Shown piece after piece: positions 6,444 to 59,376 of a DNA stretch of 64,000 nt (the first letter of the stretch is position 1; every line of letters starts with the position of its first letter). The DNA lies in contig JAQOTA010000050.1 of the NCBI GenBank assembly GCA_029532415.1, positions 310,001 through 374,000 on the forward strand. The letters are read 5' to 3'. The translations under genes were made by a program, and so were the position numbers. This DNA comes from Marasmius tenuissimus (Eukaryota > Basidiomycota > Agaricomycetes > Agaricales > Marasmiaceae). The notes beneath the pieces were generated by a model. It did no database searches and was not told the DNA's origin. It saw only the letters and a list, made by a program, of their open reading frames with translations.

Positions 6444-9400
6444 TCATTCTTCAGGCACTCCGACCTCAAGCGGGCAGGGAGGGTAGAAATCTGGACACCC
6501 TCCACTCCAGTTATGTGCCATTGCCGTTTTGGCTGTTGCTACAAAGCGATATCGCCCATCAGCAGGAGCTTCTCGTCAGCCGTAGCGAAATCAGTGCTTA
6601 CCAGCGTTTCGTGAAAATAAATTTCCCGTAATGCTCGTTATTGCCAGTGTACATGCCTTGTTGACCTCTGGACTTCCATTCGTTGAGACCGTCCTGAGTA
6701 TATCAATGCCTCCGGCGTTCACAATTTCTTTCCGAATCGCAGCTCCTCCCACATCACCAAGCAGACTCACAGCCAACGCCAACTCCACATGTACATCGAA
6801 GCAATATTCTTCTGCTGCTGCTCTGAGAGCAGCGAGTAAGGAGTCCACAGCTCCGGCTTCGACCAGCGCTTTCCTTGTCGTCCCACCCCACTCAGCACAG
6901 CTAAACCTCTGTATTGCGAATCCAAATGAACCCAGTGGGTAGACGGCTTCAGGAGGTAAAACCGTCGGAAGGCGAGCGAGACCTTTGGCGATATCAGCAT
7001 CGAGGAGAATTTTGGCCATGTCGCTACTGTTTGGTCTCATCAAGCACCCTACGGCTCTTGCACTCCAATGAAGCACGCTTGGTTCCGTGGAATTTCTGAG
7101 GTGATAGGCGAGAAGGTCGACACATCCAGCCTTGGCGAGGGCTTTGGCTTGCTTGATTGATCGAGCCATTCTCGCCATAGCGTAGAGACTACAGGATAGA
7201 GCATCGGAGCTCAGAACGTGGGCCTGCGTCGCGAGTCGAAGGTGAGTTGCTATGGCCGGAATAAAACCCATCGAGGCCATATACTCCGCCAGTCCGTCAG
7301 ACTGGATCAGTGTACCCATGCAGTACATTGATAGATTCGGGACGAGGGTATCGAGTTTCGACATCGTGCGAAGAAGTAAGGAGACCAAATCAAGCTTGAT
7401 GAGTGCTTGTGCGACTTCGGGGGTCCTGCAAATCCGGTTTAAACACCAAATAGCAAGCGCCTCGATCTCGTCCGTAGGCGATGAGCGAGCCAATTCGATC
7501 AGAATCACGGCTGTACCGGTTCGATATATCGTGTTTGCGCTGATGGAATCATGTCTGCAAGCATAAGATCAAAATGGACCCTTTGATCAAGGCAAAGCTG
7601 TGATCAGAACGTACGCAAGGGAGCCCAAAGTGATCAAAACCAACTCCACTCCATAATCATCCGCCGCTCTTGTCCTGAGTAAGTGTATCAAAAGGGGTAC
7701 AGCACCCGAATTGACAAGTTTGAACGCCTCCTTGTCGGACTCCAGAGCGCCTTCGTAGATTTTGATCAAATAACCGTCGACGGTTTCCCTTTTTCTCCCT
7801 TCTTTAACTTCTGCGTGGAGAGCCTGTACGAGAAGAAGGGAGCTGGGTCGGCCTACAAGTCGCGTAAGAATAACAGCTGTGTGTGTCACATAGATGGAAC
7901 GACCTACCACTCGAAGAGGTCTTGATACTCGGCTGGCTTTTCGACCTCCCAGATACATGTGATGGTGCTATAGACATCTCGTCCAAAGTCTCGAGGTCTG
8001 ACATCCCAGCCGAAGGCAAGGAGTAATTGTGAACATAGTGCCTATGGACTGGCGTTGAAGCCTGCGGCGAACCGAAGCCCCGTTGAGACTCCTCCCACAC
8101 CCGGGTGGACTCAAACCTTGAAACCGCTGGAAGCCCGCGAACGAGGTCACTCTCAATGTTCGAGAAACTACTTGCCGTTCGTGGAGGCGTGTAATACCGA
8201 GTCGGTGTGCTCTCATCGCTCGAATCCACTGAGAATTGTTGACGAAGTGCGGGTGCTGAGTGTGGGATTGGGATTGGAATTGGGCGATGGATCGAGGGTT
8301 GCCGGGAAGATCCTGCAAGTGGCAAGGTTACGATCGGCATCTTGATCGATGAAGAAAAAACTACTCACTAAGAGCGGGAGGCGGTGATAATATCGTGGTC
8401 TTCGGCGCGATTACGAGTGGTTCCACTGACGTTTGAGGCGTAATTGGGGAGCGTCGCTTCCCTCGGCTGCTCGAAGATGTGGCTGCGGATGACGACGAGG
8501 CCGAGCTTGACATTGTGCGTGTATGTATGAGAGCGTTCCGTAATGCAGTGGAAGACTGGATGCCCATTTCCTCCTGCAAAGCATCGAAGTCCACTTCGCT
8601 AGGGGGGTTAGGCTCGCTGGTGACTGTGGCGTAATTATGGTACCGTGGTGAGGGTTGGGGCTCTTCGACCTCGGGAGGTGCCGAGTCATCGTATGCGGGA
8701 GGTCCGGAGACGTACGATCCCACAGAAGCCGGTTGAGCCTGACGGCGATTGGGTCGTGGAGGGCCATCCATCCTGTCAAAATCCTCTGGATTAGGCGTGT
8801 TTCTCTCGTCTGTTTGAACCGAATTAGTGTTCAGCCGGAATGGTTGGTCGACCAGTTCGTGCGTGCTTACCTTCTCCCTGATAAGCATCGTCATCAAAGT
8901 CTTGCCACATCTCTAGAATGATTTCGAAGCTTGGTCGGAGACGAGGCTCTCTTGTCCATGCTTCCTCTATGATACTCCAGACTCTGTCAGTGAGTCCGTT
9001 TCTCTGCCCGGTTTCCGTATCGGGACGGTCGGGACGAGCGCCTTCCAGTACAACCAAACGGTAGATTCTCTTCTCTGATAGAACACCCCAAGGTAATGCC
9101 GACGAAAATAGCTGCGAGAAAATGGAGTTTTAGCATGGGAGCAGACCAAAGAACCAAGGCACTCGTGAGGATTCCTACCTCATAAGCACACATAGCGAAA
9201 GCAAACACGTCGGATGATTTGGAGGTCACCTGAAGATAGAGTTTAGTACAGGGGTCTAGCCTCTGAGCAATTGAGTTTATGACGCACCCCTTTCCATGCC
9301 TCTGGACTATAATACCTATGTGTATCGGGATTTCGACTAGCTTGAAGCTTAAGCATATCATAGTCGGATACGCAGGCACGGCCGCTAGAGGTTATAAGTA

Positions 9401-10006
9401 TGTTGGAAGGAATCAGGGATCCATGCACAATGCCGTTCTAGATGAAGTAGATGAGCAAGATCTCGGTTGCAATAGCCGTGATACAGTACCGTATGAAGAT
9501 ATTGCATCCCTAGAGCAACATCAAGAATCTATTTAAACATCGGTGAGAATAAACTGACACGGGGGATGTTTACTACATACCAATCGGGAGCGGTCAAGAC
9601 TATCGCGTTCAGCAGTCCACTGTGCAATATTGCCGTTCTCGTGGTAGGGTATAACAAGGAAGGAGTGGTCGTCAGAGCCTGACGATATTCCGTAGACAGT
9701 TAAGACGTTAGGATGTTTGAGATCGCTCCATGCTGTTGAGCACTGTTGTAAGAGCTGGGAAAAGATGAGTTTTGAAACACTGCCATTGACCGTTCCTTCA
9801 CTCACGTCTGGGCGACATTCAGGAAGCAGCCTCTTTATAAGAACCCTCCTTCCGTCCCATGTTCCTTTTGTCATATAGGTCGTTCCTCGAGGAGCATCAT
9901 GCAAAGATGAGCCAGGTCGCGAGTCAAGGAGTATGTCCTCCATGTGCATCGTGCGCGGTAGTCGAGATCGCACAGATGTACCGTGGCCGTGATATTTGGA
10001 GGTCAT
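6444..10006 (-). CDS. Pseudokinase-Armadillo fusion protein (copy 1)
   Basis: This is a multi-exon gene. Its start, MTSKYHGHG at 10006, aligns residue for residue with the start of the copy at 37594. The N-terminal half is a TKL-like kinase fold: GTWDGRRVLIKRLL keeps the beta-3 Lys. The catalytic loop reads VHGSLIPSNILI in place of HRDLKxxN, the metal-binding motif reads SDYDM in place of DFG, and SPEAWKG follows. A catalytically dead kinase is therefore likely. A kinase C-lobe block (SIIEEAWTREPRLRPSFEII) comes next, then a Ser/Pro-rich linker (about 8900-7930). The C-terminal half has Armadillo-type helical repeats (GAVPLLIHLLRTRAADDYG, AIWCLNRICRTPEVAQ). A last exon gives AMAHNWSGGCPDFYPPCPL and a short tail ending with TGA at 6444. 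Probable role: scaffold or signalling regulator (inference). Confidence 0.82.
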
Positions 10007-11030: not shown

Positions 11031-12663
11031 ATGGACCAGCCGCTTCGCTCTCCTCATTTCAGTACTTTCAGTGGTGTTGGGGACGCTGACGAGAAGGCAA
11101 CACAACGAAGCTCATACGTCCTGCGTACACCGTCTCATAGGAATACCCGGTTCAGTTCAATGAGCAATGGCCTCCCAAGCCCTCAGCAACCTTTCATTCG
11201 AGAATCTTATTCAGAACCACCTCCTGCGACGACCTATCGCACAGAAATACCAAAGTCAAACCCCGTTGTATCTACCTATCTGTCGCTCGGTTGGATGTTT
11301 GGTTTTCGAGAGAAATGGAGTCTCTTGTTGTGTGCGTCGTCCAAATCGTTTGATGACCACTGAATCTGAAGGGCTGACGTTTGTTCTGCAGTTTTTATCT
11401 TCCCGGGAGCTCTTCTTGGATTTTGTCTCGCCCGGAGTATGCTCATGGATGCGGGCCAAAAGATGCGTTCGATGACCGTGGCTGGTACGTAGAGTTCTCT
11501 TACCAATCTACACCCACTCAAGTCATATTTCAGGTGAATTTTTCTGGTTCGAAATGCCTCTATACAAGTACAACTATATCATACACATCTGGACGAGTAT
11601 CAGTGAGTTATCCGTTCCTCCGCACTTTGGTGACAACTGACCATTTTCTCCGAAGTTGGAGGGATTTTCTCCGGGGCTCAGTTTGTTCCGGCTATTCGAA
11701 GGGTAAGTCCCGCTATATCATCATCATCCGGTCCAGGCTCTAATGCTGATTGTGGCGCGCTGTCTTTTGGGGTTGACCAATCGTAGAATTATGTTCTCCT
11801 TCACCGCATTAACGGTAAGTCCATGATTCACCCAATCTGATCTTCATTTCCCGCTGAAGTTTCCGCGGCTCGTTAGGCTACTTTGTCATCCTGAGCGTCT
11901 TCATCTCGAATGTGTGCGGTGCCATTGTGACCAGGAGATCATTCGGTGGTGAGCTCAACAGCCAGGCGGTCTACTACATTACGGCCATCATGTCGAATTT
12001 ATCGCTCGTGTGGGCGATCATGAACGTCAAGAGAAACACCAGGACGCACAGGAAGTGGATGATACGTATGTTGGAGCCTTTCCCGACTATCTTTGGTTAT
12101 TCATTCTAACCTTGTGGTCATTAGGCGGTGTCGTTTACTTCTCTGTCGTCATTAGCGCTCGAATCATTGGCCAAGCTGCTCACGCGATCGTCACAGATAT
12201 AGGAAGCTACTACTCTGTGAGTATCTTGTCCGAAGATCGCACGTACCAGGAACGCTGAACATCCCTTTCTGATCAGATTTGGCGGTGCGACGAAATCCTA
12301 TTCGTTCTCCAAGATCTTGGAACCCTCTTGCAAAGATTCCCTCAATGCTCAGATTCCCCCGACTTCCTTTCCAACCCGACATTGTACACCGCTGTTCATG
12401 CCTCAGATAACGAGGGCAAACTTGGATCAGCTTCTGTCTCTCGGGCAACTCAGGGCATGATATTGTGGATAGCGACCCTGATACATGTTGTTGGCGTCGA
12501 AATTTACGTATGTCTTTACTCTTGGTTTAATCATCCTGACAGAAACGCTGACGCCCGCAACCAGCTCCGATGGACAGAGGAGGCGAACTCGAAACGACAT
12601 GGCTACGCACTCGAGCACAAGGACTTTGACCCTGATAGGGATTTGTACAGTGTCCACTACTAG
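11031..12663 (+). CDS. DUF2306-family membrane protein (copy 1)
   Basis: This is a multi-exon gene starting MDQPLRSPHF, with a Ser/Pro-rich cytosolic N-terminus and several hydrophobic helices. Family marks are seen once introns are removed: NYVLLHRINGYFVIL (the intron near 11816-11876 falls inside the RING codon run), AIVTRRSFGGEL, and THRKWMIR. Paired conserved His/Arg motifs of this kind (HRINGY, HRKWM) typify DUF2306, a predicted integral membrane family of unknown activity. The C-terminal exon encodes LRWTEEANSKRHGYALEHKD and ends with TAG at 12661-12663. The paralogue at 32564-34184 has the same exon layout and the same final EIY|LR splice. It is divergent from the pseudokinase-Arm gene upstream and convergent with the next one. 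Confidence 0.82.
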
Positions 12664-12943
12664 CTATCTTTCCTCCTCCATATGGACCAAATCACGACGA
12701 ACGGCACACATGAGCCAGTCCGCACTCTATGTTATTTATTATTATCTCAGTCAAAGGACCTTCTACATATCATTTTACGGGGAATCAAGCGAAGTCAACT
12801 ATTATACACTTCGTAGCGATTACACTTGTCAGATAAGTAAAGTACGTGAACTAGGTAATACAATCCCAATAATTTAGTGAGACGATGTCCGGGGAAGTAA
12901 AGAGATATAGGAAGTAAAAATGAGTGTGTCTATTCGCCAAATA

Positions 12944-15900
12944 TCAGAGGGCAGGGTGGTTGGTGTTCAGGGCAGCCGCCCAGCCACGAGTGCTTGAGTG
13001 CAGTACGAGCGGAGGCTAAATGACAACATGAACGGAATGTCAATCGAGACACCGAGTAGAAATGACCAGGGAGAACGTACCAGCGTGCCTTGTGAAAATA
13101 TTCCCCGATATACTAGTGACGGCCATATTGCAAGTCTTTGCTATCTCGGTTCCTGGTCCAGCGACCATGGCCAGCTTCTTCAAAATCGCTAGCCCACCCG
13201 CGTTCACGATCTCTTTCCGCACTGCAGCTCCACCTACATCGCCAAGGGAGCTGACTGCAAGTGCAAGTTCCGTATGAACAAGGGGACACGGTACGTCAGC
13301 AGCACGTCGTAGGGCCGCTAGCAGCGAATCGACGACACCTGCCTCCACTAGACCCTTCCGAGTCCCGCCACCCCATTCTGCATAGCTGAATCGCTGTATC
13401 GCGAAAGCAAAGCATCCTAGGGGCAGTACCTCATCTGCGGGAAGGACCCGAGGCAAACGGGCCAGTCCAGATGCTACACCCGCTCTCAGCAGTGTCTTCG
13501 CCATCTCCCCATTATTCGGTCTCATTAGACACCCAGCCGCTCGAGCGCCGCACCTCAGTACGTCTGGGTTGTTCGATGTATTGAGATGGTGCGATAGATG
13601 GTGTATGCATCCTCTGTTCGCCAGCTCCTTTGCGATCTTCACAGACCTTGACACTCGAGCCAGTAAGAACAAGGCTGAGCATGTGTCCTCGCTTGGTGTC
13701 CCTAGCTGCGAACATTGTTCCAGGTAATGAACGACGTCACTCAGGTGCTCGGCACTGGAGAATATCTCGGAAGTGAGATCGCAATGGATGAGATTTCCGA
13801 GGCACCAAGCGGCGTATCGAGCGACGAGGGGACGGCGCTGGCGTTTGCGGATTCCATGCTTTAGGAGGAGTTTTGGTAGGCCGCTCTTGACGAGGGAGGT
13901 GGCGGTCTCGGTGTTCTTGGTTGCTCTGGTGAGGCACCAGGCAGAGAGGGCGGATATGGAATGAGAGGAAGAGAGGAAGAGCTCCATGATGGTGGTGGCC
14001 GCGCCAGTACGTTGCATAATGTTAGACGTTATGGGATCGTAGCTGTCGTGAAATAGATATGAGATGTAAGTAAGACTGCCAACGAGAAAGAGTCATGACG
14101 CACGCTAGAGTCCCTAGAGTTATCAGCACCGGTATCAAGCCTTCCAGCCCCTCCTCCCCTTCGTTTGATCTCGCTTTGAGTATCTTGATAAGGATTGGCA
14201 CTATCCCCGCCGCAACGAATTTTGATGTTGCAGTTTCGGAAGGAGAAGCCTGACGGTATATCTTGACAAGATAGTCGTCGATGAGAGCGTTGTTTTTCTC
14301 GTTCTCCTGAACGACGGACTGAAGTGCTCCTGCCAAAATAACCGGTCCTGCACCGCTGTACACCAAGGTGGAACCTGGAAAACGACAATGGTCAGTCAGA
14401 ACTCTGGAGGATAGAAGCTCGTATCATGGCTGACCTACATCCCTGCTCGGGGAGGCCACTTCCGCGATCGGGCTCATGTTGGTGACTGTAGAGGTGCCTC
14501 GAGTGTCACGATTTCGTCGAGAATGTTCCTCGCTTGTTTGGGTGAGACTTCCTGAGGCAGTCGCTGTTCGCCGAAGCACAGGCTTTGCACTGGAGGATCG
14601 TCCAACCTTAGCACTCGATTCCCGAGCGTGACGAGGAGATTTTGTTGGAGCTTTGGTGGCCGTCACTGATTATCTATCAGATGCATTCTCAGGCGACAAA
14701 AGCTCCCTGCTCACCTGCGTTATCGGCAGTTGACGGTCTACGAGTTTGAGGGAGTACACGTCTTCCTCCAGCATGAGGCATTCGAACAGTCGAAACCTCC
14801 ACTTGCATGTGCGGGGGCGAGGGTGATAAATCGATCGCCGAAGAGGCAGGAGTTGAAGGAGGGTGGGAAGGACTGGCGTGACCAGACTCATGTGGCAATG
14901 AGGGAAGTGGACGGATGCGGATGGAGCCAGGTGTCGTTGGCGAAAAGGGAGAAATTGGAGTTGGGTTAAGGTTTGTGGCTTGATGGGTAGGGGAAAGGCT
15001 AGTGGTGTCGACCTGACTTAGGATAGGCCGACTTACGAGCGAAATGCTGCGCTGTAGGCCCCCTGGAATTATGATCGTAATGGTTTAGCGTTGATCTAAG
15101 AGAAAGAGACATATGACATATTCGGTACAACTTACCGGATTTAACCCAGTCTTCCTCGTCTGGCCACATTTTAACGATGATGTCGAAGGTGGGTCTAAAC
15201 CGAGCCTCCGTGTGCCACGACTCCTCTATTATCCCCCATATTTGGTCCGTGAGTCCAGCAAACAAGCATTGAGAACTACTAGGACGTGATGGTCGGACAT
15301 TCTCAAGTACCACCGAACGATAGATATGTTTTTCGGCAAGATCTCCCCACGGCGGCACGGAACTGAATGCCTAAATTGAGCCCCTCAAACCATCAGAATG
15401 CGGGGAAGTGGAGTTACGTCCAGTTGAGCTCGTACCTCAAAGGCGCACATAGCAAAGGCGTATACATCTGATGGTCTTGATACGGTCTAAAACGCAAATC
15501 AATCAGGTGGTTTCAGGGCCAGACTAGGACGACAAGTGAATGAGGCTCACGCACCCCTTTCCACGCTTCAGGACTGAAGTATCGATGGGCCTCGGTGTCC
15601 TCGTTGACTCCTTCAATCTTGACCATATCATAGTCGGCCACGCAAGCCCGGCCGTCTTCTGCGATCAACACGTCGGTAGTCTTCAGGCCCCCATGAACGA
15701 TGCCCGACTATCAGAATCGGTCAGTGAGAAAGTTCAGAAATCAAGTGATAGATGGAATCAAAACGAACAGAATGCAGGTACTGCATCCCGCAGGCGATGT
15801 CCCTAACCTGAATGGTACGAGAGTTGGTATACAATTGTCGGAGACCGAGGCCAAGAGTTTGCTCACAAGTTGTGGTCGATTTGCGATAAGATTTCGTCGA

Positions 15901-16258
15901 AGATAATCTGCCAAATTTCCTCGCTGATGGTATTCCGACACGACAAAAAGAGGGTCTGCAAATTGGTGCGCGACGCCGAAAATCTTCAACACGTTCGAAT
16001 GGTTCAACTTTGTCCAGATTGTGCCTCGTTCCGCGAGTGCCTGCCCAGTAAAAGAAGGGAGGATGAGTTCTCAAGTGGTTTCTTCAACAACTCCCGACTC
16101 ACCTGAAATGTAGCCGTTCCATCCTGCGACAAGATCTTTACCGCTACAGCTCCCATCTCCTTCCCCTCTCTAACCCAATTCCCCTTGTAAACCCTCCCGC
16201 GTCTATCCACAGCTCGAGTTTGGTCGAGGACCACATCCTCAGGGCGTATAAACGTCAT
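12944..16258 (-). CDS. Pseudokinase-Armadillo fusion protein (copy 2)
   Basis: This is a paralogue of the genes at 6444-10006 and 37594-41133. The start used is ATG 16258 (MTFIRPEDVVLDQTRAVD). The kinase-like half has GRVYKGNW, GAVAVKILSQDG (Lys kept), NHSNVLKIFGVA and IACGMQYLHS. It then has VHGGLKTTDVLI in place of HRDLKxxN and VADYDMVKI in place of DFG, followed by YFSPEAWKG. The C-lobe piece IWGIIEESWHTEARFRPTF matches the other copies. After a Ser/Thr-rich linker (about 15000-14420) the Armadillo half begins near 14366 (VAAGIVPILIKILKARSN) and runs to 13075. The last exon gives ALKHSWLGGCPEHQPPCPL followed by TGA at 12944-12946. This copy is the most diverged of the three. Exon joins in the kinase half are approximate. 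Confidence 0.8.
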
Positions 16259-22520: not shown

Positions 22521-22934
22521 TCAAACCCCTGCTTCCCCCTTTTCGTCGACTGGCTCGAAACTGGTCAAAGCCAGACCACCCGCCCACACCATCTCCACTA
22601 CGGCACTCCCAATCGCCGTCAGCTTGACCGTGATCGAGCGTTTGATTTCCTCTTCAGACATTCCGAGAGGGAGAGAATACGATGCGGCATTTTCCTCCAA
22701 GACGTTACACAGACCGAGTTTAGTGAGTGCATATGGGTCGAACTCTATACCAGCATCGCGAGAGTAGCACGTCCCCATGATGAACTCGCCCAAGGGTATC
22801 GACGGGGGGAAGGATCTGGAGTAAAAAGGACGAGGACGCCGAAGTAGAGGATGGTAAATCCTGTAAAAACAGGATCGGTGCTGTAGGCTGCCTCCAGAGG
22901 ACCTGGGACTGTGAGACTTCGGTCTGATAGTCAT
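22521..22934 (-). pseudogene. Fragment of the unknown gene at 28382-30717
   Basis: The frame encodes GEFIMGTCYSRDAGIEFDP and AIGSAVVEMVWAGGLALTSF. These closely match REFIMGTCYTRDSGIEFDP and PIGSAVVEMALAGGLALTSF at the C-terminus of the gene at 28382-30717. Just upstream, another frame reads VPGPLEAAYSTDP, matching VSGPLEKAYNTAP of the full gene. The fragment thus contains a frameshift and lacks the N-terminal 500+ residues. It lies beyond the kinase-less WD40 copy, while the full gene lies on the other side of the kinase-WD40 gene. Confidence 0.78.
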
Positions 22935-23660
22935 ATGCCTTATTCCCGCGTAGGAGTCCTGCCTTTTTACAATCTGGACGGGTTAGAGGGCGTCGGCTGG
23001 TCGATATTCTCCATGGCCTAAATCTTAGCTCGGGTACCCCACCCGTGCGTGTTGTCTCTCGGAGGTTTCCTCCCTCAAAACCTCAGAGTCAAGGACCATA
23101 ATTCTCCCCAAGGATAGACATAAATGACATCCCTCAAGATTGTCGGAAGCCTCCGTTTCTTTGATGCTTCTTTGTCTAATAATTCGCAACGAATTGGGTC
23201 ATGTTACGCCGAGACTGACGCAGATATCATCCTCAATTTCGAATGGATAGCTCTCGAAAGGATAGCTATGTTGACTCCATGCTTCGTTACTTTGGTACGT
23301 CAGGACTCAGCCTTTTGGCCAGTTTATCCGGGCCACAAACAAAAATAGATGTGCAGCACCCTATGGCGTGGACTCGATAATGTGCCAGACATGTGGCTGT
23401 CATTACTCAGTTTTACCGGATCAGCTCACCACTATCTCAAAGTGGGGACCAAATTCACGGGCTTTGCCCGCCTCTACATGGGCGCCGCTTCAGTGGATCG
23501 AGGTCAAACCGGGTATCAAGAAAAGGATCGACATGGTAGCATAGACTAATACTACAGCATCCGATTGGGACGACCCGTCGTCTACGGTTGTCTACTCATA
23601 CATCCACCCCTCAGTCCAACTTGTAACGCCCTATGGGACAAGTCTGAGGTTCAAAATTAT
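22935..23660. other. Intergenic region
   Basis: No supportable gene. Homology to the downstream flank of the kinase-WD40 gene (about 25110-25141) is visible at 23630-23660 and marks one edge of the WD40 duplication. Confidence 0.4.
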
Positions 23661-25030: not shown

Positions 25031-25141
25031 GGAGAAAGAGCAATATTCAGCGTTCTTAAACGGTGGGTGGCCTAGTAATTGACGCCAAACTGCAATACCT
25101 TGGCATAAGAGTGTATCTCCCTATTGGACGAGTCTGAGATT

Positions 25142-27927
25142 CTAATCTATCCGGAGAGAAGGGAAGATCTCACATATACGGGCCTTTCTGTCTGACCCAG
25201 CGGTGGCTAGTACGCCGCCGCCTGAGGAGCTGAAATCTAAAGATTTGACTGCGCTGAAGCTCAAAGTGCACCCTTCGAGCAATAAGGAGCGGCCCACCAG
25301 AGTCCGTGTGCCCATGCAGTAAACATCGCGTGGTGGCAGTCCGCGAATCCCAGAAGCGCACCCCACAATCTTCTGATCCAGAGGCGATCCAATGGCCATC
25401 CTGCGATACAGCGACACAAAGGACATGCTCCTATGACCAGTTACACTGTAAGTGACCGCCGCATGGAAACTTTCAAACACACCTTATGGCCAACGAATTT
25501 CATTGTACACGGACTTTCATTGAAACTGTTGCGGTCCGACACGTCCCAGTACTTCAACATTTTGTCTTCACTTCCACTGACAAGACCCCTGGCATCGGGT
25601 GTAAAGGCCACGCTATACGCGCTATCCCTATTACCTCCTAACCGCCCAACGAGTTGCCCAGTTGCTACCTCCCAGATCCGAAGACAACTGGTCACATAGC
25701 GGGCACTTACATACCGACTGTTCGAATAGCCGGCAGCTATATACCGTCCGTCAGAGCTGAATTTCACAGACGTAACGCCGGTGTTGCCCATAGAGGCGGC
25801 TGAATCGACGAATGTACTTGACGAGCCGTCTGTCATGTTCCAGACTCTGACTGTCCTGTCACCCGATCCGGAAACAAGTAGCTTTCCATCAGAAGAGAAA
25901 TCCACCGATAAGACCTCCCCGCCGTGGCCAGCAAAAATGTTCTGAATTCGTCCCTTCTCGATATCCCATATCTACAAATCGAGGGGTTCATCAGATGGGT
26001 AATAAGGCGACTTACGAAACGATGTACTCACTCTGACCAGCTTGTCCTCGGCCCCAGTCGCGAGATACTTTCCATCCGGGCTAAAGCACACGGTATGAAT
26101 CCAAAGGCTTTCGGCTTTTTCGGCATCTTCATGAAGCAGCAAGCTGTAGGAGAAACAACGTTGAAACTCTAGCAGACACAATGCCGAATAGGAGTTCTCA
26201 TACCAGATCCTGAAACCAATATCTACATCGTAAATTTGGGTCGTTCGATTACACCCGGTCGCAACATATTTTCCATCTGCAGAGAAGCGCACACAACAGA
26301 CAGCGCTGGAGGGTTTATCGCAGAGCGTCAGTCTTGAACTAATCGTAAGGAACAATTATTGTGACGGACCTGTCATGCATAAGATCATGAACAAGGCTAA
26401 CATCCGGTCCCTCATTTACGCTCGGATTGAACAGAGCAAACCAATCTGCACCCTCCTTTTTGAACTCCGGAGGATATTGAGAAAGGTTGATGTCCTCAGG
26501 GAATTCGCCTCTGGAAAAGCTAAGATTGACTCCGAGCTGAGAACCGCTGGGGGATCCCGAGGAGAAAGAGCGATATTCAACGTTCTCCCGTACATGCGTA
26601 AGCAAAGAGTCGCTCCAGTCCACGGCCGCTGCTGCTGACGCGCCCGGAACCATTTCTCCAACGTTCTCGAGGACTTGGATAGCAGTCGGTCTGGACGTTG
26701 GGATCGGATCCCAGCATCGTGTCATAAGAGTCCACATCGCATCTGACAGCCCAAATGTCTCTTGGGGTCTCAGAGGGCACTTCCCTTGTGCTACAGCGAA
26801 CATGACCGCCATGTCGTTCCCCAGTTCAGCAAACGGCAGGAGTCCAGTGAAGATCTGGAGTCAAAATTAAGTTGAGACCATCCAACGAATGCAATACACT
26901 GTTTCGTGCCGCTCACCTCGTAGCAGACACAACCGAAGGAGTACACGTCACTCTCCTTGGACGGTCGCTCGCTGCCAGATAATAACTCTGGGGCTAACCA
27001 TCGCATAGTGCCGGCTGGTCGTGTCGTGGATGTCGTGACTATAAGGCCCTGCGTATCGGCGATACGAGACAAGCCAAAATCTGCGATACACGCTCGCAGT
27101 GAGCCTGTTATGAGAACATTGACGCCTTTCAGGTCTCCGTGCACGATTTTCTCGCTGTGCAGGTAAGCCAACCCAGACGCAACGTCGTGGACCTCGAGAG
27201 GGGTGCATCAACATACTACACACTACTGAGATCAGGCGAGTGACTCACTAGCACATAATGGTCTATATCCTCCCTTTTTGTGGCCTTCATGAATTCAACA
27301 AGGTTGCCGTTCTCCATCCACGGAGAAATCATACATAGCTCGTCGGTGTGCTCGAGTTGATATATGCCAAGGAGAGGCAATAAATTTGGATGTTTCATCT
27401 GGCGCCAGAGAATTGCTTCCCGTTGGTATTCCTAAAATAACGTTGGGTTGGTTGTAACTTGAGACAGTAGCAGATCAACGGCGTACAATCGACAGTTTCT
27501 GCATATCAGAATTGAGGTATACTCTCACCACCTTCAAGCATACGACCTCGCTCGAATGGCCTATAGTTCCCTTCCAGACATCTCCGAACCCTCCAGCGGC
27601 AACTGGATGCTTCCCGATTTTCTTCACGTTTTGGATAGACAAACATGCAGGGTGTAAGCCGGATCTTTTCGATAAATGTAGCATAGCATTGAAGATTGTG
27701 GGGCGTAACTCTGGCGATAGATTTGGATAGTCTACGAGCTTCAACTCTGATGTCGGTTTCCTCCAGCTTCGTCTTGGTGAATAAGTGAGCCTCACCTGTT
27801 GCATACGATCCAGCCATTGTTGAGCAGAATCTCCCTCCTTCGTTAATAAATCCTGCCGCTTCGATTTGTCTGCAAGAACCAACTTCAAGTACTCCTCAAG
27901 ACTCTCCAATTCTGCGTTGGGGGTCAT
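25142..27927 (-). CDS. TKL protein kinase fused to Tup1-like WD40 repeats
   Basis: The start is ATG 27927 (MTPNAELESLEEYLKLVLAD). A helical leader is followed by a kinase domain with an intact-looking set: GGFGDVWKG glycine loop, VVCLKVVR Lys, MKHPNLLPLLG, HGDLKGVNVLI catalytic loop, DFGLSRI, MRWLAPELL and DVYSFGCVCYE. HGD for HRD is usual in this Agaricomycete TKL group. After the C-lobe (RCWDPIPTSRPTA) comes a linker, then [19 protein letters not shown] and [10 protein letters not shown] 64-nt intron leads into [20 protein letters not shown] and a WD40 propeller like that of the co-repressor Tup1. EHVLCVAVSQDGHWIASGSE is a clear late repeat, but its join to the final repeat is unresolved. 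Fusion of a kinase to a Tup1-type propeller suggests a signalling role (inference). Confidence 0.78.
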
Positions 27928-28381
27928 CGATAATTTCCTGGCTTTGAACTGCTGTTGAGAAGCATGAACGACAAGAGAGCAGTGTGACTATCGCTGTCAA
28001 TCCCCGCTCCATGCATTCGGAGTTCGCTTCCCACGCTGTAACTCGCCTCGTGCCAGTCTGAGTGAGGGACTGCCAGGGCTGATTTTACTTTCCTGTACAT
28101 ACCATGTCGACCCAACAGGGTTCTTCATACTCATACGTGATATACCATTTTGAAGCGCCGAAGGAGGTCAGCCTTGGTAGCGGCCACCCAGTCGTCTGTC
28201 CTCCGTTCGCTCAGTTACTGAGTCTTTTGAGTGTGAGGGTATATACATACTATGTACATTTGGCGATCGGTACAGATTTCGGTCCAGTATGGTAAAGCCC
28301 CATGGCTCTCGTATAACACGCAGCGGCCAACATGGTAAGAGGATCGTTCAGAAAGCAGCCGTTGTGGTATCCATCAAAGTG
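27928..28381. promoter_or_regulatory. Upstream region of the kinase-WD40 gene
   Basis: This holds the promoter of the kinase-WD40 gene (-) and the 3' flank of the next gene (-). It contains GTATATACATACTATGTACA near 28238. No gene is seen. Confidence 0.4.
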
Positions 28382-30717
28382 CTAAGTCTCCGCCTTTGCC
28401 GACACGGTTTTATCAACCGGTTGAAAACTGGTCAAGGCTAAACCGCCCGCCAAAGCCATCTCGACTACCGCACTCCCGATCGGTGTCAGCTTGAACGTGG
28501 TCGAACGCTTGTTATCCTCCTCAAATAATAAGGGAGGAAGGGTATACGGCACCGTGTCTTCCTCCAGGACGCTGCATAGGCCGAGTTCGTTGAGCGCACG
28601 TGGGTCAAACTCTATACCAGAATCACGAGTATAGCACGTCCCCATGATAAACTCTCGCACGGCAACGTCAACTGAGGAAGGGGCCTGGGGTCCAGAGAAA
28701 GAGTGGTCGGAAGAGGACGACGTGGAGGAGGGTAGTCGGCTGTGTAACTCGGGAGCAGTGTTATAAGCCTTCTCCAAAGGCCCAGACACTGCGAGGCCTT
28801 GATCCGGTAAACGTATACCAGATCCCTGAAGCTCCGTATGAGCTATATGTCTTCCGACGATATGGAAGTGAGGGAGAAGAATGTTACGCCTGTCATGAAC
28901 AGGTGTAAAGGTCGTTTGGGGGTCGACATCCATCAACATATCCCCGTTCAAGACTTGGTAATAGACGAGTAGGAACATTCGTTCTTCTGTAGGAACGGTT
29001 GGAGTTTCGAAAGGGAAATAACGTTGCGAATAGGGATCGGTCTCTCCGGGCCAAAGTGGAAGTAGCATGAAAAGTGATTCGCGCGGGATACCGCTCAGCA
29101 CATCGCCATCCTTCACGTCAGGAAGCAGACCGGCACTTTCTATCTTTCCCGTTGCCTCCGAAGCCATCCCATCCATACCCTGTTGCTCTCGCTTAGGCGA
29201 TGTCGATCCAACGGGGATATTCGAGGAGGAGATGAAGATAGAGGCGCGGTTCCCAGCTGAAACACTATCCCGGGGCTTGGAGCCGAGGCGTTTCAGTATG
29301 TTGGAATAGAATATTCGGCAGGATCGAAGAGCTGTTCGGGAGTATGGGAGGAGGTCAAGAACACGTTGGGTTCCATAGGCCTTGTGCGAGTCGACGACCC
29401 GAGGCTTTGGGGAAATAAGGATGGGGTCGATATTGGCCTCGTCATCGACTGCCGGATTCGACCTAGAGGTGCAAGGGACTACTTCAGAGAAAGCAGCCCA
29501 CAAAGCTCCTCTACGCGAAGGCTTCTCCGTGGGTGGATCGCTGACAGTATCGTCACCCAGCCCCTTGGCTTCGAACGTCATCATTGATGGCCTGCTCTTC
29601 GCACTGGGCTTCGTCGGGCTCTCCCTTTCTTCAATATCCTCCTCATCCCTATCAGTGTTTATCGACGACATAGCCTGTGCCAATCGTCTCGTGGTCTTCG
29701 TGTTTGTAAACGCCTCTTGGACATTCCTCTGCGCAAGCATTATAACGGTCTTGGACCGGGATGGAGATGATGGGTTCCCCCCGGTACCTCTCGCCCACGC
29801 GCTACGATGATGTCGACTCATAGAGAAGGCGGAAACTTTGGAGTGCTTATGGACGATGATGGCGGGGTGGAGGGGATCATAGCCAAGAGGATGTCGCAAT
29901 AGATGTGAAAGCAGTGGACGTGATCCATCAGCTTGCTCAGGACGAGAGGACAATCGATCGCCTGGTTCTAGATGTGGTGAATGTATCTTTCTGATGACGA
30001 GTCTCTGCTGCGGTGGCTCGCCAGCTTTACGTCCTGAAGTTTGATGGGTTTTGACTGACATCGTCGGGGTCTGAGAATGTGGCTTCCATTCCGAAGACCG
30101 GTGGCTGGTGTTGCTTTTATCTACACAATAGATGGCCGTCAGAACAGGAACAAAAGGAGGCAGGGGGAGACGATACGCACACATATCACCCCTCGACTTT
30201 GTCTCAGCAAGTTCTTTGGTCAAAACCTCCTTCTTCGCTATCCCTATTGCTGACTCTGGCGGACTCCCCTGACCGGATGATTTCGGATAGAATCTTGACA
30301 AGAATTTGCATGGAGCCCTCGAACGCTTCAACCCAACGCTGTCACCGCCAACCTGCGCTCGTATTACGACAAATCGTCCCAACAATGGGTTATTCCAATG
30401 CTCCTGTGAAGGCACTGGCATACCCAGCTGCACCCGACGAGGATTAGGTTCCGTCTGTTCTTTACGAAATGCCCACTCCTTCTGCAGGTTCGAAGATCTT
30501 TGGCTATCCCCAGTGTTCCGAACGAATAGGTCATCATGAGGGAGAAGAGGTTCCTGAGAAAACAAGATGAGAAAGGTTCGAGAGGATACAAAGCGAGACA
30601 CACCAAGTTATTCGTTGGACTCGTCATCTCTGGGACGGTGTTGGCTGAAGCAGCGGAAACGAAACCGGTTTGTTGGTCCAGTTCTCGAGTTGTGTAGACG
30701 ATGTCGTAGTCGTTCAT
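28382..30717 (-). CDS. Large protein of unknown function
   Basis: Three exons fit. The start is MNDYDIVYTTRELDQQ at ATG 30717, with a GTGTGT...CTCAG intron to EPLLPHDDLF. A second intron (about 30122-30178) leads to the main exon, DKSNTSHRSSEWKPH, which ends with TAG at 28382. The first about 400 residues are charged and low complexity (RDEEDIEERESPTKPSAKSR). The C-terminal about 250 residues look ordered: IPRESLFMLLPLWPGETD, FLLVYYQVLN, REFIMGTCYTRDSGIEFDP and AIGSAVVEM-like PIGSAVVEMALAGGLALTSF. No known domain is recognised. The C-terminal block is also found as a broken fragment at 22521-22934, which marks it as the conserved module. Read-through of the introns in one frame can mislead automatic models into starting at 30601. 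Confidence 0.75.
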
Positions 30718-32563: not shown

Positions 32564-34184
32564 TTATAGCCCTCGGGGCAAAGCAGCTTCGTTGAAAAAG
32601 TAATCGGCTTCCTCTTGAGTCGAATTTCGCGGTTGAAGCGTGTGTTGGATCTTTTGATAGTTTGCACGATCGGTGGTTCGTAACTGTAAATCAAGGGTTC
32701 CGTTCAGTCCATAGGGCAATGGTTGGATAAACATGAAAACCTACATAGATTTCGACCCCGACGGTATGAAGAAGTGCCCCAATCCATAGCCCCATTCCGT
32801 GGGTCGCACGGTTACATGCGGCTATTCCCAGCGCCCCTTCGTTCACTGAACAGTGAACGGGTACTATAAGTGTAGGATCGGTGAGAACTCCGCCGGAAAT
32901 GGAGCAAGCAGCGAATTTTTGTTGAAGAGCTCCCGAATCGTTCAGGACGAACAGTACCTCGTCACATTGCCACAGCTAACGAAACGAAACGGGAACAGAG
33001 GATAACGATCAGTGAGCGGATGTTGTTGTCAGAAGCGCACTTACTGAGAAATAAGTGCCGATAGTGGAGATAATGGAGTTTGCAGCCAGCATGATCAATC
33101 GTCCAGTGATGACGATGGAAAAGTAGACTACGCCTCCTGTTGGAATGAATAGGGATGAGCGGGAGAACCCTACACCGCAGGGTGGGAATATAACGTACTC
33201 AGCATCCATTTTCGATGCTTTCTCGTATCCCTCCTGGCATACCAGAACCCAGTGACCAAGGCATAGGTTGACATCAGTGCGAGAGTCCAGTAACCGGATT
33301 GGACGTTCAATTCGCCGCCGAAAGACCTTCTGGTAACGACGGCGCCACCAACGTTGGACACGATGATTGTGGAGAGACAGAAATAGCCTAGAGTTGGCCG
33401 AACTTAGTTAGTCGTTTGGTAAGTGCGATCGCTTTTGACCCTCACCATTGATACGATGAGCAAGCATATAGTTCTGTAGATAAATCAAGGAGTGTGAGTG
33501 CTTGCCATTTGATGAAACGATCTCAATCTCACCCTCCGAAGAGTTGGTAGAAATTGGGCTCCAACGAATATACCCCCAACTATACCCGAGTCGTCGGAGA
33601 ATGAGATGTGTGCTCGGCAGGAGGGAGAAAGGGAAAGTCTTACAGATGCTGAGGAATATGTGTATGATATAGTTGGCCTTGTATGGTTCCCGCTGAAACC
33701 AAAACATTTCACCTAGAACATGGTCAGCAAGTGACGAGGGGATAGTACTCGGGAACATACCCGCAGATGTGAGCTCGAATCTTTTCTTTGTATCCATCAA
33801 AAGGCTTCTCGCAATACAGTACCCCACGAGCGCACCACCGAAGATAATCACTAAGCACAAGGGCGTCAATAATCAACGGGACTTAAAGAGAAAACGGCGC
33901 TACGCACTCAAGACCAGGCTGAGCTTCTCCCTAAATCCAAGCATCCCACTGAGCGAGAAGTATAAGTACCCAAACGTACTGTCTTTCTTTAGAGAAGGAT
34001 AGCGATTGGCCGGATGCGGTTCCTCCCCCGCTGTAGTTTCTCGCTTAGGCAGGGACGGCAGAGGAGGAGGCGGGCTCTTTGGACTCGTCGGCGAGCGAAT
34101 CGTGTATGAGGCCTTCGATACAGTGATTTCCCGGTCATGTTCGGGGCTGCGACTCGAGTACACGGATGGAGTGCTGAGCGACAT
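32564..34184 (-). CDS. DUF2306-family membrane protein (copy 2)
   Basis: The start is ATG 34184 (MSLSTPSVYSSRSPEHDREI), giving a Pro/Ser-rich N-terminus. Hydrophobic segments begin at FGYLYFSLSGMLGFREKLSL. They continue after a GTGCGT...CTTAG intron with IIFGGALVGYCIARSLLMDT. The family marks are LAHRINGYF, AVVTRRSFGGEL and KHRKWML. The last exon encodes LRTTDRANYQKIQHTLQPRN and ends with TAA at 32564. It matches the copy at 11031-12663 in order of motifs and in the final intron, which interrupts EIY|LR in both. The family is predicted to be integral membrane; its activity is unknown. Confidence 0.82.
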
Positions 34185-37593: not shown

Positions 37594-40500
37594 ATGGCGA
37601 GGGAGGCGAACAGATATCCTACAGGACAGTCTTCTCGGGAGCAGCGGACTGTTAATCTGACCGAAATTGCCTTCGATTCTTCCTCTTCATCTTATGCCGA
37701 ATCCTCTCGGAAATCCGCTCATATCATCACAGGGACATGGAATGGTACGAGGGTGGCGGTTAAGAGGTTGCTTCCAGAGTGCCGCCAGGATGTGAGTGCG
37801 ATTTTTCCTATAATCCCTACCCTATTCAACTTGGTATCGCCTAGGCTCTATCTCACTCTGCATTGACATGGTACGATCTAAGGCATCCAAACGTCTCGAC
37901 GGTCGTCGCGGTGTCCTCAGCATATGAAGTGCCCGCTTTTGTCGTTTTGCCCTATCACGAGAACGGAAATATGGCGCAATGGACTGCCAGACACGGGTCG
38001 GTTGACCGGGCCAGCTTGGTTAGTTAAATTCAGTTGTCCCATGACCAACTCACTCTCACCAAATTTCTGTTAAGATCTTTGATGTCGTCCTTGGAATGCA
38101 ATACCTTCACGCGGTGAGGGCGTCAAACACTATATCCCCCGAGTTAGAGCATGCTTTGCTCAACTTTATTCCCAGCGCAAAATCATACACGGCTCTTTGA
38201 GGCCGTCCAACATCCTCATCAACTCCAACGGTCGTGCTTGCGTATCAGATTATGATCTGCTCCCCCTTCAAGCCAGTCGTAGTCCTGACGCCTACAAATA
38301 TTATAGTCCCGAAGCGTGGAGAGGCGTACGTGGAGTCTCAAGTGCATCACTCGCTAACACTTTGGTCTGATAGTGGTCTACTTAGATTCTTTCCCGCCCT
38401 TCCGATGTGTTCGCATTCGCTATGTGCGCTTATGAGGTGAGCTATCCATGAGAACCTTCCCACTGTTTCGGTCTGGTCCAGGAACCTGCGCCTGGTGTGA
38501 TCACACGCTCACACATATCGTGCCTACAGCTGTTCTCGTCGACACCCCCGTGGGGCGTTCTCTCGGAGAAACGGGTTTACCGACTAGTGGTTCAGGACAA
38601 TCTTCGTCCTGATCGTCCTGACTCCAAGATTGGCAAAGAGAACGGTCTAGATAGTACCATCTGGGGTATTATTGAGGAGGCGTGGGCGGTGGAGCCCCGT
38701 TTGCGGCCAAACTTTGATATCATCCTCAGAATGTGGCAGAGTCGCTCCGTCGATGGCTCTTCATCGAGCCGAGAAGGTAAGTTGGACTAGTGGATTAGTG
38801 GCGTAGAGTTCGATACTGACATTTCACCTGTAGCACGGTCAAGGCCGAATGCCCGTGCTCCGGCCGTTGACAATGGGCAGCCCTCTCGACTGTATCGCGA
38901 CCGTCTCGAAGAAAGTCCCATCGAGTCATACCATACGTGCCCACCAGCATATTCTCGCGAAGCTTTGGCTCAGGCCGAGAGGTCTGAACCCTCACCGGAG
39001 TACAGTGATTACACCAGGATGACCGGTACCCCCAACCCTCGGGGAGAAACACCGAATCCGGGACCCCACCCATACAAGAAGTCGTCCATTCCCCCTGTTC
39101 CTAAGCAACATGATGGCGTAGGGGCAGACCCATCTATCCATACATCTGGTACGAGGGATATGTCAAGGGCATCTTCTCGTGCAAGAGGCGGAGTACCATT
39201 AGCACTCGTACCAGGATACCGTACCCAAGACAATCGGCGAGAGCCTGATTCCAGTGAGAACCTTTCACTTTTACACCCTCCATGCTAATTACGTTGAACT
39301 AGGGGCACCACCTCACTCTGCACCAGCGAGTCAACAACAGTTCTCCGAAGATGACGTTGCAAGGTCATTAACAGTGGTCCCTCAATCTGCCCCTCCCCTT
39401 CGGAAGCAGTATTCGTTAGACGAAACTACGCCCGGCCGTACTTACTTCACGAACTTCCCGAACGATATGAGATATGCTCTTCCCTCTACTACACCTAGCG
39501 TGGAATCCTCCGGACGGTCGTGGCGAGGTACTCAGATAACTGCCTCTTATTCGGAGCCCTCGGATTCGTACCCCACCAGAGACACGTCAGCCACCCTCGG
39601 TCGACCTCAACCTCAACCTTCCAGAACCGCAAACTGGTCACTGTCGATGTCTCGGAGACCGAGCACGAAACCTTCTGTCGCTGGTGAGTCGATCAGGTTG
39701 TGTCGGCCCCAACTTTGTAGCTCAACTTCACCTAGCACGACCGAGCCCTCATTTCCTTGTCCAGACACTTCAATCTGAGGTCAAGGCAGGCAGGAGGAGG
39801 GAGAGCATTGATGTACATTTGATCAAAATGTACGAATGTGCCGTGGAATCAGATAAGGACGCCTTCAGACTGGTCAATGCCGGAGCTGTACCTCTCCTAA
39901 TTCACCTCCTCAAGACGAGGGCGGCGGATGAATATGGTGTAGAGTTGATCCTGATCACGCTGGGTACACTTGCGTATGTCCTAGGCCCACAGTTTTCTAG
40001 TCAGTTGCATTCTCATCGTATTCCTCGTCGCTCTAGGTATGACCCAGTCAGTGCGAACACGATACATCGAACAGGGACAGCGGCCACCTTGGTCGAGATC
40101 GCGGATTACCCACCCACGCCTGACGTTGGAATCCTCGCTATCTGGTGTCTGAACCGAATATGCAGATCCCCCGAAGTCGCCCAAGGACTCGTCAAACAGG
40201 ATCTCACTGCCATCCTCGTTCGAGCATCCTCTCACTCCGAGCCCATAGTTCGAAACACGGCAATGTACTGCCTCGGAACTCTCATGCAAACCGACGCACT
40301 AGCCGAGTTTATGGCCTCCACAGGCATAGTTCCCATCATCGCCAACCACCTCCGCCTCGCAGCTGCCCCGTTAGTCCCCAGCTCCGACGGACTGTGCTCT
40401 GGTCTATACGCCGTAGCACGGATATCCCGTTCTATCAAGCTCGCCAAAGCTTTCGCCAACACCGGCTGCATCGAATGTCTGGCCTATCAGCTAAGAAATT

Positions 40501-41133
40501 CGACCGATCCAGAGGTGTTGCACTGGGCGGCGAGAGCAGCGGGATGTCTGATGAGACCAAATAGTAATGATATGGCAAAGATCCTTCTGGATGCTGGTGT
40601 CGCTCAAGGGCTTGCCAGATTGCCGACAGTTCTGCCCCAGAGCACTCTCCACCCTCTAGGATCGTTCGGTTTCACGATACAGAGGTTCAGCTGCGCTCAG
40701 TGGGGTGGTGCGACGAGGAAAGCGCTGGTAGAAGCCGGTGTCGTCGATGCACTCTTAGCTGCCCTCAGGGTTGTAGCAGACGAACGGTGTCAGGATGTTC
40801 ATGTGGATCTCGCGTTGGCTGTAAGCCTACTCGGAGATGTTGGTGGTACTGCCATTCGCAAAGAGATCGTGAATGCGGGTGGTATCGACATACTACGAAC
40901 CGTTGGGCAGAATGGCGCGCCAGAGGTTAGCAAGGCGTGTAGGATGGCAGTAACGAGCGTCACGGGGAATGTACTCTCTGGGAATGCAGGTGTGTATCTC
41001 GAACTGTTACCACTACCGCACCGAAGCTGACAATGGTCTAGCGTCTGCTAAAACTGCCCTAGCGCACAACTGGAATGGAGGTTGTCCCGATTACTATCCG
41101 ACATGCCCGCTCACGGTGGAGACATTGCGATGA
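37594..41133 (+). CDS. Pseudokinase-Armadillo fusion protein (copy 3)
   Basis: The start is ATG 37594 (MAREANRYPTGQ, good GCC-ATG-G context). The kinase-like half shows GTWNGTRVAVKRLLPECRQD (Lys kept), LRHPNVSTVVAVSSAY and VVLPYHENGNMAQW. It then has IHGSLRPSNILINSNGRAC in place of HRDLKxxN, VSDYDLLPLQ in place of DFG, and YYSPEAW. The C-lobe piece IWGIIEEAWAVEPRLRPNF is conserved. A disordered linker (about 38780-39690) is followed by the Armadillo half: GAVPLLIHLLKTRAADEYG, AIWCLNRICRSPEVAQ, MYCLGTLMQTDALAEFMAS, AARAAGCLMRPNSND and LAVSLLGDVGGTAIRKEIV. The final exon after a GTGTGT...TCTAG intron gives AHNWNGGCPDYYPTCPL and a short tail, ending with TGA at 41131-41133. It is closest to copy 1. 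No ATP-independent role is known. Confidence 0.84.
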
Positions 41134-59236: not shown

Positions 59237-59376
59237 ATGTATGTCCTTCGACGACATTGGATCTCAAGGATCCAATGCTCCTCGTTGAGTATAGCGCCTT
59301 GATGGCTGCTTCCTGTGTTGATTAGACGCATGCTGATGCTGTCTTTTCTATATCCAACACCTAACCTCTTACTACT
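59237..59376. other. Junction between copia fragments
   Basis: 140 bp with several stop codons in all frames. No LTR-like sequence is seen, so fragment 2 appears to lack its 5' LTR here. Confidence 0.4.

What the first reader, a model, noticed from the sequence alone, without database searches (positions are those of the whole stretch)
6444..41133. Family of three pseudokinase-Armadillo fusion proteins
All three copies keep the beta-3 Lys but have HG(S/G)L in place of the HRDLK loop (including loss of the loop Asp) and DYD in place of DFG. All place a disordered linker and an Armadillo-type domain after the kinase fold. The same substitutions in every copy suggest selection for a non-catalytic or unusual kinase, not decay. 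I know of no described system with this architecture.
Basis: partly seen in the sequence, partly recalled or inferred. Interest (0 to 1): 0.78.

Follow-up and report, generated by a model that had tools for sequence, protein, structure and literature searches.

The report
Mushroom pseudokinase–Armadillo fusion protein family
Three neighbouring fungal genes each encode a kinase-shaped domain that has lost its catalytic residue but kept ATP-site residues, joined by a long floppy linker to an Armadillo scaffold; relatives occur in many mushroom-forming fungi and some still look like working kinases, so the steps by which a kinase became a scaffold can be traced.

Summary
Genes A (−, 10006..6444), B (−, 16258..12930) and C (+, 37594..41133) each have 11 exons and the same intron-phase series, and encode a TKL-like kinase fold, a disordered linker and an Armadillo solenoid in one protein. 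C equals deposited Marasmius tenuissimus PM082_004357 (980/980). A fourth copy lies elsewhere in the genome.

The architecture is a conserved family of mushroom-forming fungi. Of 106 rows, 17 (all Ceratobasidium/Rhizoctonia) keep HGD, DFG and the Gly-rich loop; 70 lack the catalytic Asp (S36 G20 R11 N3); 19 could not be scored. The 70 keep DFG Asp (70) and β3 Lys/Arg (67 of 67 readable) but no αC Glu (0 of 68 readable). Three unscored rows have Glu for DFG Asp.

Trees favour an active kinase–ARM ancestor with one or two losses of the Asp; DYD arose twice by parsimony. One intact clade still carries an MLKL_N-like bundle.

Best reading: a nucleotide-holding, non-catalytic pseudokinase tethered to an ARM scaffold, comparable to ULK4 or STRAD–MO25. 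"No described architecture" is wrong (ULK4); the fungal origin looks independent. Function is untested.

The parts
6444..10006 (-). Gene A, 995 aa, 11 exons: 10006-9806, 9754-9581, 9528-9490, 9437-9288, 9229-9179, 9111-8871, 8809-8369, 8312-7908, 7852-7615, 7554-6602, 6538-6444
   Evidence: Spliced model; 943/990 identical to P0001 of Marasmius sp. AFHP31
12930..16258 (-). Gene B, 901 aa, 11 exons: 16258-16103, 16040-15867, 15807-15769, 15707-15555, 15486-15436, 15370-15136, 15062-14715, 14665-14435, 14374-14104, 14042-13081, 13015-12930
   Evidence: Spliced model; 863/898 identical to P0062; intron 8 donor GTCAGC is weak
37594..41133 (+). Gene C, 980 aa, 11 exons: 37594-37791, 37845-38018, 38075-38113, 38176-38325, 38386-38436, 38530-38776, 38834-39253, 39303-39683, 39736-39973, 40037-40989, 41042-41133
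   Evidence: Spliced model; identical to deposited P0003 PM082_004357, 980/980
9414..9425 (-). A: HGSL, catalytic Asp replaced by Ser
9357..9365 (-). A: DYD in place of DFG
9827..9844 (-). A: beta-3 motif VLIKRL with retained Lys
15684..15695 (-). B: HGGL, catalytic Asp replaced by Gly
15627..15635 (-). B: DYD in place of DFG (by parsimony arose separately from A/C)
16130..16147 (-). B: beta-3 motif VAVKIL with retained Lys
38188..38199 (+). C: HGSL, catalytic Asp replaced by Ser
38248..38256 (+). C: DYD in place of DFG
37753..37770 (+). C: beta-3 motif VAVKRL with retained Lys
6444..7850 (-). A: Armadillo region (aa 569-995) with conserved C-terminal GGCPD tail
   Evidence: PF00514 40.7 bits; AF2 of ortholog P0001 mostly pLDDT over 90 there
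12930..14351 (-). B: Armadillo region (aa 471-901)
   Evidence: homology to A and C; PF00514 just under cut-off
39738..41133 (+). C: Armadillo region (aa 555-980)
   Evidence: PF00514 30.7 bits

Best explanation
Each gene makes one protein: a TKL-like pseudokinase that should not transfer phosphate in the normal way because the catalytic base is gone, a disordered linker (about 200-290 aa), and an Armadillo solenoid of about nine repeats (my count of helices). The pseudokinase most likely still holds a nucleotide (beta-3 Lys and DFG Asp kept) and acts as a conformational docking switch, while the ARM solenoid grips a partner; together they recruit, place or allosterically set an active partner. 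Models: ULK4, which binds Stk36 and controls its localization though it is dispensable for Stk36 activation, and STRAD with MO25, which activates LKB1; here both halves are in one chain. Shown: gene structure, fusion, folds (predicted), residue losses, conservation, phylogeny. Inferred: nucleotide binding, lack of catalysis in vitro, scaffold role, existence and identity of a partner.
Against: No biochemical data. The Gly-rich loop is degenerate in most of the 70 rows, which could abolish nucleotide binding. Three rows left out of the 70 (P0028 and P0058 Lentinula, P0066 Cylindrobasidium) have Glu in place of DFG Asp, so retention is not absolute. 17 of 105 ARM-region hits lack PF07714 (by eye; 3 of them, P0068, P0079, P0090, still match the kinase C-lobe strongly), so the pseudokinase may be dispensable in places. 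No partner is known. Activity despite missing motifs is reported for CASK and IRAK2 (PMC2686265, passages).
Confidence: 0.5

Rival explanations
1. The kinase fold is a slowly decaying passenger; the ARM solenoid does the work and the kinase part adds little.
For: ARM is more conserved than the kinase between orthologs (A vs P0001: ARM 421/427, kinase 260/280; B vs P0062: 424/431, 254/264) and across 50 members (mean identity 0.583 vs 0.49). Relatives without a kinase Pfam match exist (17 of 105, by eye). Progressive loss of Gly-rich loop, alphaC Glu, HRD Asp, DFG Gly and, in three rows, DFG Asp.
Against: DFG Asp 70 of 70 scored rows and G, L and D of HG.L and DFG invariant in 51 non-redundant rows are not what drift gives; AF2 gives a confident kinase fold for P0001.
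Confidence: 0.22
2. An unusual but active enzyme that uses another residue as base, or transfers something other than phosphate (as recalled for SelO and SidJ).
For: Lys and DFG Asp retained; the catalytic-loop Lys is kept in 60 and Asn in 59 of 70 rows; some pseudokinases retain activity (PMC2686265, passages).
Against: The base position is S, G, R or N with no one chemistry and alphaC Glu is lost; the loop Lys is Ile in A and Arg in C, the loop Asn is Asp in B.
Confidence: 0.1
3. Part of a necroptosis-like cell-death pathway: an MLKL-type lineage in which the killer bundle was lost and an ARM scaffold kept, now modulating cell death or allorecognition.
For: The 1078-1168-aa Ceratobasidium/Rhizoctonia members, with intact catalytic motifs, have an N-terminal region whose profile matches a profile of six MLKL_N regions from other kinases (hhalign prob 92.8, E 4e-7; reversed, five column-shuffled and an ARM control 0.1-0.2). 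Of 8 other kinases scanned, 5 carry PF22215 over its cut-off. Nearest solved sequences include RIPK1. Some fungal HELL domains sit in proteins with kinase/pseudokinase domains (PMC12881547, passage).
Against: Window copies have no bundle (no PF22215; kinase starts near the N-terminus). In the bundle-bearing clade Pfam scores it under cut-off (13.5-16 vs 27 bits); against single MLKL_N regions hhalign gives 0.1-78.1; its AF2 model is low confidence; PDB sequence search found nothing. No functional data.
Confidence: 0.12
4. Artefact: separate kinase and ARM genes joined by wrong gene models.
For: In all three copies a stop lies shortly beyond the kinase unless intron 6 is spliced.
Against: Intron 6 has a GTAAG donor and phase 1 in all three copies; deposited annotations from many genera give one protein, though these are predictions too.
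Confidence: 0.02

Closest known systems
ULK4 (PMC10721220, passages)
   Same: N-terminal pseudokinase plus C-terminal Arm-repeat region in one chain
   Different: ULK-family kinase domain (recalled); the present domain is nearest to TKL kinases by sequence. Independent origin is inferred, not tested by a joint tree
STRADalpha with MO25alpha (PMC2686265, passages)
   Same: Pseudokinase with Ser in place of HRD Asp, working with an Armadillo-like helical-repeat scaffold
   Different: Two separate chains; STRADalpha also lacks beta-3 Lys and DFG; target LKB1 known
SCYL1-3 and VPS15 (architecture recalled; only listing seen)
   Same: Kinase-like domain with helical (HEAT) repeats
   Different: Other kinase families; HEAT rather than ARM (recalled)
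ILK, HER3, JAK JH2 (PMC4718504, passages)
   Same: Catalytic base lost, DFG Asp used for nucleotide or cation contact; JH2/HER3 with a Lys-Asp bond in place of Lys-Glu
   Different: Animal proteins with other partner domains
Fungal MLKL_N-kinases / basidiomycete MLKL-likes (PMC9815663, PMC12881547, passages)
   Same: Several outgroup kinases have MLKL_N-like N-termini; one family clade keeps such a region
   Different: Window copies have no bundle and have an ARM solenoid
FslK, fungus-specific TK-related kinases (PMC3937382, passages)
   Same: Kinases close to TK/TKL retained and expanded in Agaricomycetes
   Different: FslK predicted active; paper does not mention Armadillo; relation to the present family not tested

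Membership tests
Protein kinase-like fold | PF07714/PF00069 over curated cut-off | tested here: met
Pseudokinase | Lacks one or more of beta-3 Lys, HRD Asp, DFG Asp | tested here: met
   HRD Asp replaced in A (S), B (G), C (S)
Pseudokinase | No phosphotransfer activity | not testable with these tools
   needs an assay
Catalytically competent kinase | HRD Asp present | tested here: not met
   Absent in A, B, C; 0 of 70 scored rows outside Ceratobasidium/Rhizoctonia
TKL group | Nearest relatives by sequence are TKL kinases | tested here: met
   Best solved chains CTR1 and RIPK1 for A; no formal kinome classifier was run; group names recalled
Armadillo repeat proteins | PF00514 over cut-off / ARM solenoid fold | tested here: met
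ULK4 | Pseudokinase followed by Arm repeats in one chain | tested here: met
   architecture only (PMC10721220 passage)
ULK4 | Kinase domain of the ULK family | tested here: inconclusive
   ULK4 not among the 60 shown of 2387 matches; no tree with ULK4 was made
STRAD | STE20-like pseudokinase with C-terminal WEF motif for MO25 | not tested
   no search for WEF made
MLKL | N-terminal four-helix bundle | tested here: not met
   No PF22215 match in A, B or C (E up to 1); a candidate region exists only in the 1078-1168-aa Ceratobasidium/Rhizoctonia members
FslK | Falls in the FslK clade | not tested
   FslK sequences were not fetched

The most novel reading that the evidence does not exclude
The family preserves the intermediate stages of a kinase-to-scaffold conversion: an MLKL_N bundle plus active TKL kinase plus ARM protein (still present in Ceratobasidium/Rhizoctonia) lost the bundle, then the catalytic base, then in several lineages the DFG glycine, leaving a pseudokinase-ARM scaffold in the other lineages. 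The Marasmius copies would then regulate a fungal necroptosis-like or allorecognition pathway, displaced from the executioner role.
Probability: 0.15. Interest if true: 0.75.

Novelty: new variant of a known kind. Interest (0 to 1): 0.5.

Why it matters
Pseudokinases paired with helical-repeat scaffolds are known from animals (ULK4, STRAD with MO25). Here a similar design comes from a fungal TKL-like lineage, is found in Marasmius, Mycena, Armillaria, Lentinula, Athelia, Cantharellus, Tulasnella and other genera, and has relatives with intact HGD/DFG motifs and, in one clade, an MLKL_N-like bundle. That gives a before-and-after series in which the loss of catalysis can be placed on a tree and its consequences tested. 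My searches of open-access full text (listings cut at 5-20 papers, e.g. 20 of 140 and 20 of 164) showed no paper on it, and two papers on fungal kinases that I searched for the word do not mention Armadillo. Subscription papers could not be searched.

Tried and rejected
Separate-genes reading: rejected on conserved intron 6 and deposited one-chain models. Private-to-this-genome reading: rejected. A single loss of the catalytic Asp: favoured by the kinase tree (node 95/66) and the joint tree (71/31), but the ARM tree joins one active clade to Tulasnella/Botryobasidium (SH-aLRT 80) and that grouping is not rejected (p-AU 0.467); so one or two losses. Neighbour genes as partners: the divergent gene next to A has a paralog next to C, but 6 further matches elsewhere in the genome and no Pfam match in the two exons tested; not used. 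NCBIfam gave only kinase matches far under cut-off. The profile search was dominated by other kinases (2470 hits, best 120 listed). PDB sequence search with the N-terminal region of P0122 found nothing. ULK4, SCYL and STRAD were not among the rows shown; that absence proves nothing. The pseudokinase survey of Kwon et al. 2019 was not held.

Rows dropped: of 106 family rows (91, 13, window A and B; window C is P0003), 19 could not be scored; 7 of these can be read at the DFG position (4 Asp, 3 Glu). P0224 and P0232 were read afterwards (HGS/DCG and HGN/DYE) and are not in the 106. The 17 'intact' rows have alphaC Glu in 13 and Gln in 4. Trees used chosen rows: 58 family and 17 of 27 outgroup candidates; left out were P0151 and P0160 (themselves without HRD or DFG Asp) and P0093, P0138, P0139, P0149, P0161, P0190, P0193, P0196. 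P0138 is a 430-aa Rhizoctonia protein with the same motifs as the intact clade and may be a short relative. Structure 1 used 70 family rows, structure 2 used 35. Taxon and order names beyond those printed by the tools, and kinase group names, are recalled.
Full report
WHAT IS THERE. The window is G000:C7:310001-374000 of a 71 Mb, 70-contig genome. Gene C translates to a protein identical over 980/980 residues to deposited Marasmius tenuissimus PM082_004357, and contig C13 has the same length (538,170) as the contig of another protein of that species, so I take the organism to be M. tenuissimus, a cacao thread-blight fungus (start of abstracts seen in the listing).

I built gene models by hand from splice sites and homology. 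A (995 aa), B (901 aa) and C (980 aa) each have 11 exons; intron phases are 0,0,0,0,0,1,1,1,2,1 in all three, with 7 of 10 introns at the same alignment column and 3 in the loosely alignable linker. Identities over aligned residues: A-C 543/946, A-B 383/858, C-B 369/847. Intron 6, with a GTAAG donor in every copy, joins the kinase to the linker; unspliced, the frame meets a stop soon after in all three. B's intron 8 uses a weak GTCAGC donor; the deposited relative P0062 (863/898 identical) has the same junction with one substitution beside it. A genome search with the ARM region of A gave 11 matches at four loci: A, B, C and one on C13. The last corresponds to deposited P0027 and has 10 exon blocks, i.e. 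it lacks the last intron.

THE KINASE PART. Pfam gives PF07714 over cut-off in all three. The nearest solved sequences to A's kinase region are CTR1 and RIPK1, with ILK further down (60 shown of 2387). Retained in A, B and C: beta-3 Lys, His-Gly-x-Leu of the catalytic loop, DFG Asp, the SPEAW segment. Lost: Gly-rich loop, alphaC Glu, catalytic Asp (S, G, S in A, B, C), DFG Phe and Gly. The Gly after His is not a departure: 16 of the 17 outgroup kinases read HGD and one HAD.

A CONSERVED FAMILY. A full-length search with A listed 91 family members before a sharp drop (E 1e-97 to 1.5e-25; 7,992 candidates scored, 120 of 129 hits listed). A search with the ARM region of P0036 gave 105 hits, the weakest at 3.4e-74 and none between that and 1e-3; only the 7,994 candidates sharing most words were scored. 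By eye, 88 of the 105 carry PF07714. Named sources include Marasmius, Moniliophthora, Paramarasmius, Tetrapyrgos, Dendrothele, Armillaria and relatives, Mycena and relatives, Lentinula, Cylindrobasidium, Athelia, Cantharellus, Tulasnella, Botryobasidium, Ceratobasidium and Rhizoctonia. Relatives of A and B bear gene numbers two apart in Marasmius sp. AFHP31 (PQX77_008932/_008934) and M. crinis-equi (V5O48_006243/_006241), so the A-B neighbourhood looks conserved.

MOTIFS ACROSS THE FAMILY. Of 106 rows, 17 have the catalytic Asp, DFG and the three glycines of the loop, and by their listed names all are Ceratobasidium or Rhizoctonia (alphaC Glu in 13, Gln in 4); 70 lack the Asp (S36, G20, R11, N3); 19 could not be scored. 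In the 70: beta-3 K62, R5, gap 3; alphaC Glu in none of 68 readable (R48); DFG Asp 70; third DFG position G45, D12, S6, A4, C2, E1. Against: three unscored rows show Glu for the DFG Asp (P0028, P0058, P0066). In 51 non-redundant rows and 231 scored columns, DFG Asp ranks 5th in conservation and beta-3 Lys 38th, while the catalytic-Asp position ranks 115th and the alphaC-Glu position 158th. So these members gave up the base and the alphaC anchor and held the two residues that can contact nucleotide or each other, as described for JAK JH2 and HER3 (PMC4718504, passages).

HISTORY. With the trait columns removed, the kinase tree (75 rows) places both Ceratobasidium/Rhizoctonia clades at the base, next to the outgroup; the catalytic Asp changes once (node 95/66). 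The ARM tree instead joins one of those clades to Tulasnella/Botryobasidium (SH-aLRT 80). The joint tree again needs one change (71/31), and the alternative is not rejected (p-AU 0.467). One or two losses are therefore open. A third-position Asp (DYD) needs two changes on the joint tree; the B lineage lies inside a mostly DYG group in both single-domain trees. The kinase-ARM fusion thus most likely predates the loss of catalysis.

AN OLDER ARCHITECTURE. The 1078-1168-aa Ceratobasidium/Rhizoctonia proteins carry about 200-240 extra N-terminal residues, predicted helical at low confidence. Pfam sees MLKL_N below cut-off at about the same place in the three scanned (13.5-16 bits against 27). A profile of nine of these N-termini matches a profile of six MLKL_N regions with probability 92.8 and E 4e-7, against 0.1-0.2 for a reversed, five column-shuffled and one ARM control; against the six regions singly it gives 78.1, 35.8, 23.6, 6.2, 1.2 and 0.1. 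Of nine further outgroup N-termini, five match the MLKL_N profile at 96.8-98.3, one at 90.2 over 40 residues only, one at 65.2 and two at 0.1. Of eight other kinases scanned with Pfam, five carry MLKL_N over cut-off. The window copies show no such match.

HOW IT LIKELY WORKS. I favour a nucleotide-holding pseudokinase used as a docking switch, on a flexible tether to an ARM solenoid that grips a partner. STRADalpha has Ser for HRD Asp and works with the Armadillo-like MO25 to activate LKB1 (PMC2686265, passages). [quoted passage not shown] The partner here is unknown. The ARM part is the more constrained (A vs P0001 421/427 against 260/280 for the kinase; B vs P0062 424/431 against 254/264), which also fits the rival in which the ARM does the work.

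NOVELTY. The architecture is known in animals, so this is a new variant of a known kind: a fungal version from TKL-like kinases, with relatives of intact catalytic motifs surviving. My literature searches (listings partly capped) showed no description of it; the survey by Kwon et al. 2019 was not held and may include such sequences.

Noticed in passing
window 23750-27987 (-): A kinase gene with intact HGDLKGVN and ADFG motifs (Pkinase at 26791-27207) followed by what look by eye like WD40 repeats; a possible active neighbour, not tested as partner.
   Followed up: partly
window 11476-12660 (+) and 32694-33872 (-): Paralogous genes, hydrophobic by eye (exon pieces 45-59% identical), each divergently placed on the 5' side of A and C, so A and C may be parts of an inverted duplicated block; further matches on C6, C35, C3, C34.
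   Followed up: partly
window 23664-25120 vs 25145-26860 (-): Tandem duplication of the WD40-like/kinase-tail region, minus-strand ORF pieces 54-79% identical.
   Followed up: no
window 28385-30607 and 22524-22982 (-): Related ORFs (71% over 82 aa), one of them a 741-codon open frame; function unknown.
   Followed up: no
window 125-1099 (+), 41732-42514 (-), 48144-48893 (-): Three related ORFs (28-55% identical) without Pfam match.
   Followed up: no
window 56701-61797 (+): copia-type gag (PF14223 in 59365-60816) and related ORF pieces: probably retrotransposon copies.
   Followed up: no
C-termini of A, B, C (e.g. 6444-6538): Conserved tail with GGCP and a second Cys after the ARM solenoid across the family; possible cap, metal or disulphide site.
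   Followed up: no
G000:C10:5.12-5.68 Mb: Dense cluster of kinase-domain matches in the same genome.
   Followed up: no
database proteins P0004, P0005, P0007: Family members annotated with extra enzyme domains (PF17389, PF01636, PF00561); probably merged gene models.
   Followed up: no
database proteins P0151, P0160: Kinase-like proteins of Ramaria and Gautieria outside the family with YGxL and SFL at the HRD and DFG places: apparently other agaricomycete pseudokinases.
   Followed up: no
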